The notes under the pieces were generated by a model. It worked only from the letters and a program-made list of their open reading frames with translations, was not told where the DNA came from and ran no database searches. DNA of 37,489 nt from positions 1-37,489 of IMG/VR virus record IMGVR_UViG_3300024433_000020, one strand, 5' to 3'. The DNA is from a virus. Shown here piece by piece: positions 11,944-26,971 of the stretch; position 1 is the stretch's first letter, and every line of letters begins with the position of its first letter. Position numbers and translations under genes: made by a program.

Positions 11944-12047
11944 CAATTAATCGGCTCTTCTTCCGCGCTGTACTTCATTAACAAAAGCGTCACAGGCAAG
12001 CCAATGCATAAACTAAAGATCAGATATCCGATAATAAATTGCATCAT
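11943..12047 (-). CDS. Tiny single-pass membrane protein (34 residues)
   Basis: The ATG at 12047-12045 overlaps the holin-like gene's TGA (ATGA). The 34-residue frame starts MMQFIIGYLIFSLCIGLPV, continues hydrophobic to about residue 24, and ends with an acidic tail SAEEEPIN. It is the last gene of the late unit, in the lysis region, so it may be a small lysis accessory (holin partner, antiholin or spanin-like), but nothing in the sequence proves that. The start context GCATCATGATGCAATTTA is identical to that at 824. Confidence 0.6.
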   Translation of the reverse strand: MMQFIIGYLIFSLCIGLPVTLLLMKYSAEEEPIN

Positions 12048-12487
12048 GATGCTTCTTTTTTCTTAGCGAATTTGTTCATTGCCACATTGGTAATTTGCCC
12101 TAAATATGGACTAGCGAAATAGAATCCAAGGATCAGCATAACCGCGCCAGTCATTTGTTCAATGTTATCGCCAATTACTTTTGCGCTTGCGTCCCATTTT
12201 TCAGGCGACCCAAGCCAAATACCAGCAATTGGCAAAGCCATCCTTGCAATAAACATTAACAACCAAACGAAAGTGATAGAAAGGGCTATTATCCGCCTGG
12301 CCAGGTTTTGCCCTTGTGTTGTCTCCATCCATCGGATAAGCATGTTGCGGCCTTCACTAATCGCTTTAGCTGCGTCTTCGGCCTTTTCTTCTTTGGTGTA
12401 GATAAACCTATCCAAACCATCCCCAACGGCTTTCACCGTATCGCCCAAAGCTTTAGGGCTGCCAAGTAATCTACCTAAAAATCCCAT
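12044..12487 (-). CDS. Probable holin (phage membrane protein)
   Basis: 147 residues. An N-terminal amphipathic, charged region (GFLGRLLGSPKALGDTVKAV, then KEEKAEDAAKAI) is followed by hydrophobic segments at about 64-92 (RIIALSITFVWLLMFIARM and on) and 110-128 (MTGAVMLILGFYFASPYLG). The end is basic and polar (KKKEAS). The layout resembles phage holins of the 3TM/class III-like kind annotated next to endolysins. It lies downstream of the M15 endolysin and of two other membrane genes. It would form lesions in the inner membrane to time lysis. Confidence 0.65.
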   Translation of the reverse strand: MGFLGRLLGSPKALGDTVKAVGDGLDRFIYTKEEKAEDAAKAISEGRNMLIRWMETTQGQNLARRIIALSITFVWLLMFIARMALPIAGIWLGSPEKWDASAKVIGDNIEQMTGAVMLILGFYFASPYLGQITNVAMNKFAKKKEAS

Positions 12488-12488
12488 A

Positions 12489-12905
12489 TCATTTCAATCT
12501 TAATAGTGACTTCAAAATTGGCAAGCCTGATATCCCAAAACTACCAAGAAGAGGCGTTAAATAAATATAAAATTCAATCTCAGTACCGTAGAAAACTTTC
12601 GCCCAACTCATGAATAAAAATACCCTAAGACACCAAAGCGAACCGTACAGTATCACCATGTCTTTTAAATCGCTTTTATCCAACTTACCGTCTGCATTTT
12701 CTACGCCTTCCTTTACCCACCCTCTAAAAGATTTAGAAACTAGCATTACGATTTCAGGTACAAACATCATAACTACGAAAAAATATAACATTTCTTCAGG
12801 GGGTCTATTTGGATTAGCCCGCGCTATCATTTGTGAAGCGGGTGAAAGTAAAGCATTGTATAACCATATTCCAAACAGCTTAACGGAAACAAGAATCTTT
12901 GACAT
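12489..12905 (-). CDS. Membrane protein in the lysis region
   Basis: 138 residues with hydrophobic stretches at about 39-58 (MLYFFVVMMFVPEIVMLVS), 82-103 (KDMVILYGSLWCLRVFLFMSW) and 108-130, and a charged loop between the first two (GWVKEGVENADGKLDKSD). Its stop is one base before the holin-like gene start. The Glu- and Asp-bearing loop and repeated membrane spans do not match a holin family I know. It could be a second holin/antiholin or a host-envelope modifier. Confidence 0.65.
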   Translation of the reverse strand: MSKILVSVKLFGIWLYNALLSPASQMIARANPNRPPEEMLYFFVVMMFVPEIVMLVSKSFRGWVKEGVENADGKLDKSDLKDMVILYGSLWCLRVFLFMSWAKVFYGTEIEFYIYLTPLLGSFGISGLPILKSLLRLK

Positions 12906-12912
12906 TTGCCGA

Positions 12913-13266
12913 TCATTTTTTATATAACAAAGTTCCTAAAGAGTAAATCAAAATACCTCCGACAACCGGCAGCATTGGTAGCTGCCCCCTGTATAAGAAA
13001 TATTCCAGTAGCCTAAAGTTAGCGAAAATGACTAACAATATCGTTAAACGTGAATACCTAGTTGTTTTTTCGCGTATAGAAAAGTGGACAGCCAACGTTA
13101 ATAATATATTTGTAACCATCCATCCGGCGTCATGCGCAATCCACTTTGGTTTTTCTAAATGGTCAACAAATAGAAAGACATCAACTTTTTGGTCGATGTC
13201 TTCGAATAATGTCCAAAGGAACATCAACGGTAAACTTAAAACCGCCAATATAATTGCCTTTTTCAT
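12913..13266 (-). CDS. Multi-pass membrane protein next to the endolysin
   Basis: 117 residues from the ATG at 13266, which overlaps the endolysin stop as ATGA; a longer in-frame start at 13368 would lie 100 bases inside the endolysin and is rejected. Four hydrophobic segments, about 1-20, 47-63, 72-90 and 95-113, with short charged loops (EDIDQKVD, SIREKTTRYSR, LYRGQ). Function unknown. Translational coupling to the endolysin suggests a role in lysis or envelope passage. Confidence 0.65.
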   Translation of the reverse strand: MKKAIILAVLSLPLMFLWTLFEDIDQKVDVFLFVDHLEKPKWIAHDAGWMVTNILLTLAVHFSIREKTTRYSRLTILLVIFANFRLLEYFLYRGQLPMLPVVGGILIYSLGTLLYKK

Positions 13267-13715
13267 TCTCTTGGGTCTGAAGGTAATTGGCCCGGGTCGT
13301 CGCTTGCTAACGTAATTTGGTGGTGCGGGTAATCTTTTAAGGATTTCCAAAAACCACCCCATTCCCAATCAATGCCAAGTTCTTTTGCACATGACATAAT
13401 AACCCCACTTATAACAGCAAGTGGCACTTCTTCCCAAACTGCTTTACCGTCAATAAAAGCATAGATATCAACTCCTAAACTTGGGTAATGGTTATGCTTT
13501 CCTTTACGACTTACGCCGTCTATGTTAGTTACTATTTGGCCAGGCTCCGAACGTCCTTGCGTATATAGTTTTTGCTGTCTGTCAATTGTTCGGTGACCTT
13601 CAGCTATACCAAAGTCAATAGGCGTTCTTTCTATAGCCAGATTCAGAACTTTTTGAATTGCTGCGTCGCAAGTTGCTAATCTGCTTTTACTCGTTTTTCC
13701 AAATGAATAGATCAT
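13263..13715 (-). CDS. Endolysin, M15 family peptidase (L,D- or D,D-carboxypeptidase type)
   Basis: 150 residues, the whole being an M15_4-type zinc peptidase. Motifs: EGHRTIDRQQKLYTQGRS (39-56), the zinc site KHNHYPSLGVDI with His76 and Asp83 (H-x6-D spacing), WEWGGFW (118-123) and DYPHHQI with His131 or His132 as the third ligand. Such enzymes cut the stem peptide of peptidoglycan (L-Ala-D-Glu or D-Ala-D-Ala). No signal peptide, so it needs a holin. It is followed immediately by several membrane genes, a typical lysis cassette at the end of the late unit. Confidence 0.9.
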   Translation of the reverse strand: MIYSFGKTSKSRLATCDAAIQKVLNLAIERTPIDFGIAEGHRTIDRQQKLYTQGRSEPGQIVTNIDGVSRKGKHNHYPSLGVDIYAFIDGKAVWEEVPLAVISGVIMSCAKELGIDWEWGGFWKSLKDYPHHQITLASDDPGQLPSDPRE

Positions 13716-23756: not shown

Positions 23757-23757
23757 T

Positions 23758-24288
23758 TTAAATATTCAAATACAGTGCAAAGTAATATCCGGCTGCTGTC
23801 AATAGGTGCCAAAGGCTATGCCAACCACTGTCGTGGTACTTTAATTGCTTTGGGTCTTCATCTTTAGATCGGATAAATAAAGCGATCAAGAATATTGCGG
23901 CTATTACCGCGAAAGTTGACAATGATCTGTTGTACAAAATTGCCCCCAAAGCAATGCTTGACGACATGGCAACTTCAATACTTACGTCCAATTTACCTAA
24001 AAGTACGTACCCGTAGAAGACATGGAATAGTATCAAATACCCCCAAACTTCTAAGCTCCCAAAGTGTACCCCAGCAACAATAATATTTAAAAAAGCCATT
24101 GCCCACCAATCAAATTTCCAAATAGGGTTTGCGACCCTATTTGGTGATTTATCGAAATGGTAAACAAAAGACCCTATACCCAAGGCCTGTAACCCCAAAC
24201 ATGCAACAATATCTTGGTGCAAGTAAAGGGCAAAAAATCCAGCTATGTTATACGCTAAGTTGGAATAGCTTTCAAAATATTCTTTCAT
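23758..24288 (-). CDS. CREST/alkaline ceramidase-like multi-pass membrane protein
   Basis: 176 residues with about six or seven hydrophobic spans. The metal-site pattern of alkaline ceramidases (CREST superfamily) is present in order: SNLAYNIAG (9-17), GIGSFVYH with Ser40 and His44 (spacing S-x3-H), Asp60 in KFDWWAM, and WHSLWH with His157 and His161 (H-x3-H) in the last span, followed by LLTAAGYY. In animal alkaline ceramidases the same Ser, His, Asp and His-His residues coordinate zinc and hydrolyse the ceramide amide bond. It sits inside the tail module, with an ATGA overlap upstream and one base before the tape measure start, so it is made late in infection. The true substrate is unknown; other CREST members are receptors or other lipid hydrolases. 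Confidence 0.7.
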   Translation of the reverse strand: MKEYFESYSNLAYNIAGFFALYLHQDIVACLGLQALGIGSFVYHFDKSPNRVANPIWKFDWWAMAFLNIIVAGVHFGSLEVWGYLILFHVFYGYVLLGKLDVSIEVAMSSSIALGAILYNRSLSTFAVIAAIFLIALFIRSKDEDPKQLKYHDSGWHSLWHLLTAAGYYFALYLNI

Positions 24289-24788
24289 GATTGAATTACT
24301 GAAATTAAGAATTCGAACGTTTTACCGCCGTCTGGACTCACTACCGTATTCAAGAACGTGTCTTGTGGGTGGGTTCCGCTTGTTGCGTCCGCAACGATCT
24401 TGGCCAACAATGAAGTGTCAATTCCTGAACGCTTCCAACCATTAAACCAATTGTCTATTGAAGTTAAATACTCAACAGTGTCGTTTTTATCCAAATCTGG
24501 ATGGTAAATAGCCATTTCGGTAAGTTCTCGAATCTTCTTTTCCCTGGCTAAAACTTGTGTTTCAGAAACACCTGCTATTCCACCATCGTGCGCAGCTATA
24601 ATCCCGTCAAGGTTAGTCTTGTCTTCGGCTGAAGGTGTTTGTTCAAATTCAACAAATATCATCCCTTTAAACTCGTAAGTAGGAGTGACATAGTTTTGGA
24701 TTGTGCTTGCCCTAATTTCCAAGTCAAGTTTTTCGTAATTGACAACCCCGTTCAAAGTTTCTGATTTGCTGTAAATTTTAGCTTCCAT
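24285..24788 (-). CDS. Hypothetical tail-module protein
   Basis: 167 residues. Begins MEAKIYSKSETLNGVVNYEK, beta-strand-rich to about residue 55, then helical (AREKKIRELTEMAIYHPDL, residues 80-98), then a Trp-rich segment SIDNWFNGWKRSGID, and a C-terminal strand-like end. No membrane span. Stop overlaps the ceramidase-like gene start (ATGA); 5 bases separate it from the upstream gene. No recognised family. Confidence 0.65.
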   Translation of the reverse strand: MEAKIYSKSETLNGVVNYEKLDLEIRASTIQNYVTPTYEFKGMIFVEFEQTPSAEDKTNLDGIIAAHDGGIAGVSETQVLAREKKIRELTEMAIYHPDLDKNDTVEYLTSIDNWFNGWKRSGIDTSLLAKIVADATSGTHPQDTFLNTVVSPDGGKTFEFLISVIQS

Positions 24789-24793
24789 GATTT

Positions 24794-26065
24794 TTAACTT
24801 ATAGTCACGTATTCTTCGATTTCAATAATTGTATTCCATATTGATGCAAGACCACCCGCCGCGCCCCCTGCTACCTGTAGCAACAAAGTATTGCTTCCTA
24901 ATGCTGTCGGTGTAACAAAAAACTTACCGGTGAATCTATGTCTTTGATTAGTCCCTCTACCATCAGGATCGCCACCCCCTACGTCTTTAGGTTCTTGCCG
25001 GTGGATTTCCGAATTATCAGTTAACCCCGTAATCAAATCTAAACCGCCCAAAGATGCCGCCGCAACAAAATCGTTTCCCCCATCATTTAGTGACCAGCCG
25101 TAACTAATTGTTATTAAATGCGGAACCAGCCGTTGGATATTGACTTGAACATTCACAGCGTCTTGCAATACCGCCGTGTTGTTGATTATCAAATTAGGGT
25201 TGGTGAAAACCTGTTTTAATGTAGGTATGAAGTCAGTACCATTCCATTTCAGTATTGTGTTATCAAGAGAAGAAACCCCTGCTAAGTCAACATCGTCGTG
25301 GACTTCTATCGAAGCGTTGATGTCGATTCGCTCTTGGTCTGTTATTATTTCCCCACTTCCTGCGTCGTCTACATCGCTGTGAATTGTCACGGTTCCAGTG
25401 TCACCGGCTACCACGTCCACGTTATCGGCAACAGTAATATCTTTATCTTGCCAAGTGGCAATTCTTCTTTGGCCAGGCGATACAAGGTTGACTTCAAACC
25501 CAAGTTGCTTTGAATTGTCAAACCCGTCTTTGATTGTAAACTGATCATCGAGAAGATAATAAGGGACATCGGCACCCCTGTAAGTCCAAGCCCCAGCAAC
25601 CGCTTTATAAATTCCGGCTTCCCTTCTTGTTCCTAAAATCCACGTTCCCGTAGCCTGGTCAACAACCCAATATTGACCATCACTTGCAACAGGGTCGGGA
25701 AGATCGGCAAACGTGTTCACGCGCTGCGAATCTGGTATTAGTGGACTGTCGGCACTAGCTAAAAAAAAAATCGCTCTAAGAGCGTCAAGCAACGCGCCAG
25801 CGTCAGCCCAAGTATTGGTGCCGTTTACGTCGATGGTGTCCACCGTTATGTCAAGCGGTATCCGGTCTTTACTGCGATTAGATTCTTGATGTGTGGAGGG
25901 GGTGCCAATCTTTTTCAAGATGCCAGTAAGGTCGTACAGATAGACCACATTCCCCGAACGATCTGGCGTGTATGGGTGTAACTCTTTATCACCGAAAGCG
26001 GCTTGCTTTCCGTTAACATCGACAAGAACCGAATTTGTGTTGGATGTAAAGGTATAATTTGCCAT
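24794..26065 (-). CDS. Tail fibre or minor structural protein
   Basis: 423 residues, rich in Thr, Asp, Gly and beta structure. A middle segment LPDPVASDGQYWVVDQATGTW resembles the repeat-like strand modules of fibre proteins, and a C-terminal domain (LQDAVNVQVNIQRLVPHLIT to EIEEYVTIS) looks like a jelly-roll. A run of A residues at 25761-25769 encodes FF within RAIFFLAS. It precedes the tape measure by two genes; minor tail or adsorption proteins at this place are known in Bacteroidetes phages. Assignment rests on composition and position. Confidence 0.6.
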   Translation of the reverse strand: MANYTFTSNTNSVLVDVNGKQAAFGDKELHPYTPDRSGNVVYLYDLTGILKKIGTPSTHQESNRSKDRIPLDITVDTIDVNGTNTWADAGALLDALRAIFFLASADSPLIPDSQRVNTFADLPDPVASDGQYWVVDQATGTWILGTRREAGIYKAVAGAWTYRGADVPYYLLDDQFTIKDGFDNSKQLGFEVNLVSPGQRRIATWQDKDITVADNVDVVAGDTGTVTIHSDVDDAGSGEIITDQERIDINASIEVHDDVDLAGVSSLDNTILKWNGTDFIPTLKQVFTNPNLIINNTAVLQDAVNVQVNIQRLVPHLITISYGWSLNDGGNDFVAAASLGGLDLITGLTDNSEIHRQEPKDVGGGDPDGRGTNQRHRFTGKFFVTPTALGSNTLLLQVAGGAAGGLASIWNTIIEIEEYVTIS

Positions 26066-26085: not shown

Positions 26086-26565
26086 TTAAGCTGATTCCAT
26101 AATAGCAACGTAATTATAGAATTCTACAACGCTGCATTCGTTCGCCCTAACAGGGAAACCAATAAACTTGCTAATCCTGGCACAAGTCGTTTCAATCTTT
26201 TCACTTTCACCGGTAATCAACAATTTTGCTTCAGCTTCATAAACCTTGGCGCGTATAATTTGCCACTTCTTACCGTTATACGCCTGGTCGTAGAATGCCA
26301 GTGCTTTCTTCATTTTCGTAATGTATTGAACGTATGCTTCCGGCAACCCATGTGCTTTAATATGTTGGTCAAATATTCTTGGCCAAAGTTTGGAGGCTTT
26401 CACAATTGAAAAGTAATTGTTTTTACTCATTTGCGATAAATCCCCAGACATGCACTTGGTGAAGTTGCCAATTGGCATCGTTTGGATATCACGATAATAA
26501 TTCGCGAAGAATGTAACTAATAATTTCCGGTAACACTTCGTTAGCCAATTCTTGAATACTTTCAT
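26086..26565 (-). CDS. Hypothetical protein of the tail/neck module
   Basis: 159 residues, helical, basic N-terminus (MKVFKNWLTKCYRKLLVTF) then FANYYRDIQTMPIGNFTKCM and helices rich in Lys/Tyr. The ATG at 26565 lies 77 bases inside the upstream gene; the Met at 26478 is a possible later start, but the YYRDIQTMPIGNF stretch before it looks conserved-protein-like, so the longer form is kept. No function recognised; tail assembly or structural is the contextual guess. Confidence 0.55.
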   Translation of the reverse strand: MKVFKNWLTKCYRKLLVTFFANYYRDIQTMPIGNFTKCMSGDLSQMSKNNYFSIVKASKLWPRIFDQHIKAHGLPEAYVQYITKMKKALAFYDQAYNGKKWQIIRAKVYEAEAKLLITGESEKIETTCARISKFIGFPVRANECSVVEFYNYVAIMESA

Positions 26566-26971
26566 TTGTCAATCCTATTATGTCCGAACCCCAACGTTCG
26601 CGAAGGTCTTCGCCTTCTTTCAACGTGTCGGCTTTTAATACAAAACTGTCAGCCTTTTGTACGAATTCCCAAGATCGGTAAAATTCCCCTTCTTGGTAGA
26701 GCGTAACACGGTCAAAAGGCAAACCTTCGAAACGCTTCAAATCTTTTGTTATAGGTGCATAGCCGCCGCCAATACGTGAAAGTTCGACCCCTTCACTATC
26801 TACACCATGTAAAAACAATTGTCCGTATTCGCTATTGTTCGGGCTTCCGGTGTTAAGTTCAATGGCGAATAGTTGAATATGGTCTTGGGAAAATACAAAA
26901 AAAAGGGTTGATTCATAAGTCAACCCTTTTCCGTTTTTTATCAAGTCCGTGAGTCGTCCCCAAGTTATCAT
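26489..26971 (-). CDS. Hypothetical protein of the tail module
   Basis: 160 residues. Starts with ATG overlapping the previous TGA (ATGA). Mixed alpha/beta: ITWGRLTDLIKNGKGLTYES, then strands FFVFSQDHIQLFAIELNTG, SRIGGGYAPITKDLKRF, RVTLYQEGEFYRSWEF, then a helical C-terminus ISYILRELLS. The aromatic and strand content suggests a compact structural or virion protein. No family recognised. Confidence 0.6.
   Translation of the reverse strand: MITWGRLTDLIKNGKGLTYESTLFFVFSQDHIQLFAIELNTGSPNNSEYGQLFLHGVDSEGVELSRIGGGYAPITKDLKRFEGLPFDRVTLYQEGEFYRSWEFVQKADSFVLKADTLKEGEDLRERWGSDIIGLTNESIQELANEVLPEIISYILRELLS

What the first reader, a model, noticed from the sequence alone, without database searches (positions are those of the whole stretch)
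23758..24288. Ceramidase-like (CREST) membrane protein encoded inside the tail operon
Seen: a multi-pass protein with Ser40-x3-His44, Asp60, and His157-x3-His161, in the same order as the zinc site of alkaline ceramidases, plus an N-terminal SNL motif and a closing LLTAAGYY like the ceramidase LTGLGSY. Known: several Bacteroidetes make ceramides and other sphingolipids, which are rare in bacteria, and this phage appears to infect that phylum. Inference: the phage may hydrolyse or modify host sphingolipids late in infection, to help lysis, release or entry. The location is odd: it lies between a structural gene and the tape measure, with overlapping starts and stops, so it is made together with the tail. 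I am not aware of this activity in a phage.
Basis: partly seen in the sequence, partly recalled or inferred. Interest (0 to 1): 0.82.

Follow-up and report, generated by a model that had tools for sequence, protein, structure and literature searches.

The report
Phage ceramidase-like membrane enzyme in tail operon
This uncultured virus, probably of Bacteroidota bacteria, carries among its tail genes a very divergent relative of the ceramidase family of membrane enzymes that cut fatty-acid amide bonds, something we found in only two other phage-like contigs and not described in the papers we could search.

Summary
The ORF is real: 176 aa on the minus strand (24288..23758), in a gene-like frame and coupled to both neighbours. 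Pfam Ceramidase alone is not significant (E 0.085). However, a profile of five bacterial "ceramidase domain" proteins and two that I found on phage contigs detects it at 25.5 bits (E 4e-6 among 7,241 ORFs). None of about 2,000 hydropathy-preserving shuffles exceeds 13.6 bits. Ser40, His44, His157 and His161 align with the family motifs. Asp60 sits at the start of helix 3 but is 5 residues out of ceramidase register. The acidic YCER/DWCE N-terminus of ceramidases is missing. The charge pattern puts the active site on the cytoplasmic face, opposite to the bacterial relatives. I therefore call it a divergent CREST-superfamily member of the ceramidase branch, probably a zinc amidase of N-acyl lipids. 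Substrate and activity are not shown. It is accessory: about 20 related phages lack it. Compared with the closest relative, it lies in a swapped block that also changes the C-terminal half of an upstream tail gene. The lysis inference is unsupported, because a normal endolysin exists elsewhere. No relative was found in 50,697 cultured-phage records.

The parts
23758..24288 (-). CREST-superfamily, ceramidase-branch 7-helix membrane protein (176 aa): E3, S9-N10, S40-x3-H44, D60, R140-x2-D143, H157-x3-H161
   Evidence: Translation; coding frame; profile 25.5 bits, E 4.2e-6 in 7,241 ORFs, 0 of ~2,000 shuffles; alignments
24285..24788 (-). 167-aa ORF directly upstream, its stop overlaps the start of the ceramidase-like gene (ATGA); no known relative
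24794..26065 (-). 423-aa tail-operon protein; N-terminal 219 aa 73% identical to the counterpart in L002, C-terminal half unrelated; probable tail adhesin or decoration (inference)
   Evidence: no database hit
23757..25427 (-). Exchange block: C-terminal half of the 423-aa gene, the 167-aa ORF and the ceramidase-like gene are replaced as a unit in the closest relative (L002)
   Evidence: DNA alignment with L002 stops near 25428 and resumes at 23757, one base before the tape-measure start codon
20985..23756 (-). Tape measure protein (923 aa)
   Evidence: Position and blastp to annotated tape measures in L003-L005
26086..26971 (-). Two overlapping ORFs in tail assembly chaperone position (160 aa and 159 aa); in about 20 related contigs these lie next to the tape measure
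   Evidence: annotated chaperone at the equivalent place in L004 and L005

Best explanation
It is a very divergent, shortened member of the CREST superfamily, on the branch of bacterial ceramidase-domain proteins. It is an accessory gene that the phage carries in an exchangeable block of its tail operon. Most likely it inserts in the host inner membrane as seven helices, binds zinc through His44, His157 and His161, uses Asp60 and Ser40 to activate water and hold the oxyanion, and hydrolyses the N-acyl amide bond of a ceramide-like host lipid. In a Flavobacteriia/Cytophagia-type host this could be a sulfonolipid (N-acyl capnine), a dihydroceramide or another N-acyl amino lipid. The charge pattern puts the active site on the cytoplasmic face, so it would act on newly made lipid. 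Shown: ORF, motifs, homology, accessory status, block exchange. Inferred: zinc binding, catalysis, substrate, orientation. Purpose (altering surface lipids, perhaps to block superinfection or change membrane state during infection) is a guess.
For: Profile of 7 ceramidase-domain proteins hits at 25.5 bits, next ORF 9.5, best of ~2,000 shuffles 13.6. Profiles from the two phage sequences alone (20.4 bits) and from five bacterial ones alone (16.7) each beat every shuffle. Full-length alignment (residues 3-171) keeps E3, N10, G37, S40, H44, R140, D143, G155, H157, W160 and H161. The same bacterial profile matches human ACER3. Helix layout fits the CREST rules of PMC3146951. The low-confidence AF2 model built with the two phage relatives has myomaker, a CREST/TMEM8 member, as its three best PDB matches, prob 0.72-0.89, next 0.16. 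All five residues are needed for full ACER3 activity (PMC9436119). K+R count 9 on the catalytic side against 1 on the other.
Against: Pfam Ceramidase is not significant. Sequence score (25 bits) is far below that of true family members left out of the profile (117-179 bits). Asp60 is not aligned with the family Asp (spacing from His 16 instead of 11; TrhA of E. coli has 15). The N-terminal YCER/DWCE segment is absent. Structure models have pLDDT 48-51, so zinc-site assembly is unproven; the single-sequence model matches nothing. No close homologue exists to test conservation. Host and host lipids unknown.
Confidence: 0.5

Rival explanations
1. It is a CREST protein but not an amidase of sphingolipids: like TrhA/hemolysin III or myomaker it works in membrane energetics or membrane remodelling, or acts on ester lipids as proposed for Per1.
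For: Asp spacing (16) and the W-K-F-D segment resemble E. coli TrhA (15, WLKKFD) more than ceramidases (11); its inferred orientation equals TrhA (10 against 2) and is opposite to bacterial ceramidases. TrhA affects membrane energetics (PMC9017321). Best fold matches are myomaker.
Against: TrhA scores -3.4 bits with the profile that finds this protein at 25.5; no Pfam HlyIII, Per1 or TMEM8 match at E<=1; TM1, TM6 and TM7 align with ceramidases.
Confidence: 0.25
2. A membrane protein of CREST descent that has lost catalysis and serves as a superinfection-exclusion or receptor-blocking protein exchanged together with the tail adhesin.
For: Fast-evolving, no close relatives, lacks the acidic N-terminal segment, lies in a block swapped together with the C-terminal half of a tail gene.
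Against: All five catalytic-type residues are kept, which would be unlikely after long loss of activity.
Confidence: 0.15
3. Not homologous to CREST: a generic phage multi-helix membrane protein with a chance SxxxH...D...HxxxH pattern.
For: Motif layout alone arises in about 0.1-1.6% of shuffles; Pfam not significant; low-confidence models.
Against: Profile tests with two independent sequence sets and shuffles.
Confidence: 0.1

Closest known systems
Bacterial ceramidase-domain proteins (Pfam PF05875; Paracoccus, Sinorhizobium, Planktothrix)
   Same: Seven helices; SxxxH at end of helix 2, HxxxH and W/H pattern of helix 7, E..SN of helix 1, R..D of helix 6; full-length profile match
   Different: 40 aa shorter, lacks the YCER N-terminus, Asp offset by 5, opposite charge bias, only 21-23% identity
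Phage-contig ceramidases L213 (88.7 kb) and L214 (358 kb), IMG/VR
   Same: Encoded on phage-like contigs; same motifs; L214 shares the cytoplasmic-side charge bias
   Different: Those have the normal N-terminus and Asp spacing, lie beside tRNA/RNA-modifying and replication genes, not in a tail operon; 24-26% identity
Human alkaline ceramidase 3 (PDB 6G7O)
   Same: S77-x3-H81, D92, H217-x3-H221 order and helix positions; closing LTGLGSY-like segment
   Different: Reached only through the bacterial profile; calcium-site segment missing in the phage protein
E. coli TrhA (PAQR/hemolysin III branch of CREST)
   Same: His-to-Asp spacing and orientation
   Different: No profile score (-3.4 bits)

Membership tests
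CREST superfamily | Seven core transmembrane helices | tested here: met
   Two AF2 runs give seven main helices, low confidence
CREST superfamily | SxxxH at the end of helix 2 and HxxxH at the start of helix 7 | tested here: met
   S40/H44 and H157/H161, aligned with family members
CREST superfamily | Conserved Asp at the start of helix 3 | tested here: inconclusive
   D60 lies at or near the start of helix 3 but is not aligned; spacing 16 against 11 in ceramidases and 15 in TrhA
CREST superfamily | Statistically significant sequence relation | tested here: met
   25.5 bits, E 4.2e-6; 0 of ~2,000 shuffles
CREST superfamily | Fold with the residues meeting at a metal | tested here: inconclusive
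   pLDDT 51, pTM 0.36; best PDB matches are myomaker but E 0.7
Alkaline ceramidase (Pfam PF05875) | Score above the Pfam gathering cut-off | tested here: not met
   12.7 bits against 32.5
Alkaline ceramidase (Pfam PF05875) | Acidic N-terminal segment (YCER in bacteria; DWCE in ACERs, recalled, not fetched) | tested here: not met
   ORF begins at the next conserved Glu (E3); only 11 in-frame codons upstream, none similar
Alkaline ceramidase (Pfam PF05875) | Hydrolysis of ceramide, zinc content | not testable with these tools
   Needs expressed protein

The most novel reading that the evidence does not exclude
Phages of lipid-amide-rich bacteria carry cytoplasm-facing, stripped-down ceramidase-type hydrolases that remodel the host's ceramide-like or sulfonolipid membrane during infection, exchanged together with the tail adhesin so that lipid modification and receptor choice co-evolve.
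Probability: 0.15. Interest if true: 0.85.

Novelty: new variant of a known kind. Interest (0 to 1): 0.58.

Why it matters
Enzymes of ceramide-like lipids in phages are, as far as the searched literature shows, undescribed. A phage CREST protein would give a compact (176 aa) model of this fold without the N-terminal segment, and would make testable whether phages attack or remodel the sphingolipids and sulfonolipids that mark Bacteroidota membranes.

Tried and rejected
Direct homologue searches found nothing: cultured phages, plasmids, IMG/VR (10), GTDB contigs, 46 related viral records. A motif-degenerate synthetic alignment and a WHxLWH DNA pattern gave only unrelated ORFs. A bacterial ceramidase-like seed written from memory served only to fetch real sequences; all statistics use fetched sequences. 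The single-sequence AF2 model and its fold search were uninformative. Viral fold matches (105) include giant-virus and actinophage membrane proteins at E>0.1; not followed. Lysis role rejected as the leading idea because an endolysin (phrog_465) is encoded at 13263-13715. No paper on phage ceramidases was found.

Full report
What is there. The window is one IMG/VR virus record of 37,489 bases. The named stretch holds a 176-aa ORF on the minus strand. Its codon use fits the phage genes only in this frame, somewhat less well than the other genes. The start overlaps the stop of the 167-aa ORF upstream (ATGA) and the stop is 1 nt before the tape-measure start.

Is it more than chance. In hydropathy-preserving shuffles the motif layout at the right places occurs in 0.09%, and anywhere in order in 1.6%. 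Pfam finds only Ceramidase, at E 0.085, over residues 5-45. I therefore fetched real bacterial ceramidase-domain proteins from plasmids and, with their alignment, two IMG/VR contigs that encode full-length members: L213 (221 aa, Pfam 2.2e-7) and L214 (206 aa, Pfam 1.7e-4). L214 is a 358-kb contig with a phage DNA polymerase and RNA ligases; L213 has a tail-fibre gene nearby and Thg1 next door. A profile from five bacterial and these two sequences scores the window protein at 25.5 bits, E 4.2e-6 among 7,241 ORFs; the next ORF has 9.5 bits, the reversed sequence 3.4, and the best of about 2,000 shuffles 13.6. The two halves of the profile each detect it separately. True members left out of the profile score 117-179 bits, so this protein is much more divergent. 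E. coli TrhA, from another CREST branch, scores -3.4.

Anatomy. Aligned and kept: E3, S9-N10 (helix 1), G37, S40, H44 (helix 2), R140 and D143 (helix 6), G155, H157, W160, H161 (helix 7). Not aligned: the helix-3 Asp; D60 is 16 residues after H44 instead of 11, as against 15 in TrhA. Missing: the acidic YCER segment before helix 1. This fits the CREST description in PMC3146951, and the five residues correspond in order to the ACER3 residues whose mutation abolishes or cripples activity (PMC9436119). AF2 is weak (pLDDT 48 alone, 51 with the two phage relatives). The second model's three best PDB matches are myomaker, a CREST member (prob 0.72-0.89, then 0.16), but E is 0.7 and the input contained ceramidases, so this is supporting evidence only.

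Orientation. Counting Lys+Arg in loops, the catalytic side has 9 and the other side 1; TrhA 10 and 2; phage L214 8 and 2; L213 5 and 6; three bacterial ceramidases 2-4 and 9-13. By the positive-inside rule the active site of the window protein faces the cytoplasm, opposite to the bacterial relatives. Helix limits were set by hand, so this is a lead.

Surroundings. In about 20 related viral contigs the tail assembly chaperone position adjoins the tape measure directly or with other ORFs, and none has this gene (many of the 46 contigs searched are short fragments). In the closest relative, L002, DNA similarity stops inside the 423-aa gene (near 25428) and resumes at 23757, one base before the tape-measure start; the block between is replaced. 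The gene is therefore a recent accessory part of a block that also exchanges the C-terminal half of a tail protein. A separate endolysin lies at 13263-13715. Host: the capsid and a tail protein have their best cultured relatives in Flavobacterium phages at 27-36% identity, so Bacteroidota is likely but the genus is unknown. In Cytophagia/Flavobacteria, sulfonolipids are abundant and seem to exclude sphingolipids (PMC10191378), which makes N-acyl capnine a candidate substrate at least as good as ceramide.

Verdict. No such gene was found in 50,697 cultured-phage records or in the searched literature.

Noticed in passing
L213:8001-8666 and L214:7998-8618: Two IMG/VR phage contigs (88.7 kb and 358 kb) encode full-length ceramidase-domain proteins; L213's lies next to a tRNA-His guanylyltransferase.
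   Followed up: partly
window 23757-25427: Exchange block against L002 that swaps the C-terminal half of a tail-operon protein and the following ORFs while the flanks stay about 67% identical.
   Followed up: partly
window 12044-13715: Probable lysis cassette: endolysin (phrog_465) plus three small ORFs, at least two with hydrophobic segments.
   Followed up: no
window 26086-26971: Two overlapping ORFs in tail assembly chaperone position; in phage 1/32 (L005) the equivalent is annotated as a joined (frameshifted) product.
   Followed up: no
L207:1-1654: In Paracoccus liaowanqingii a fatty acid desaturase gene directly precedes the ceramidase-domain gene.
   Followed up: no
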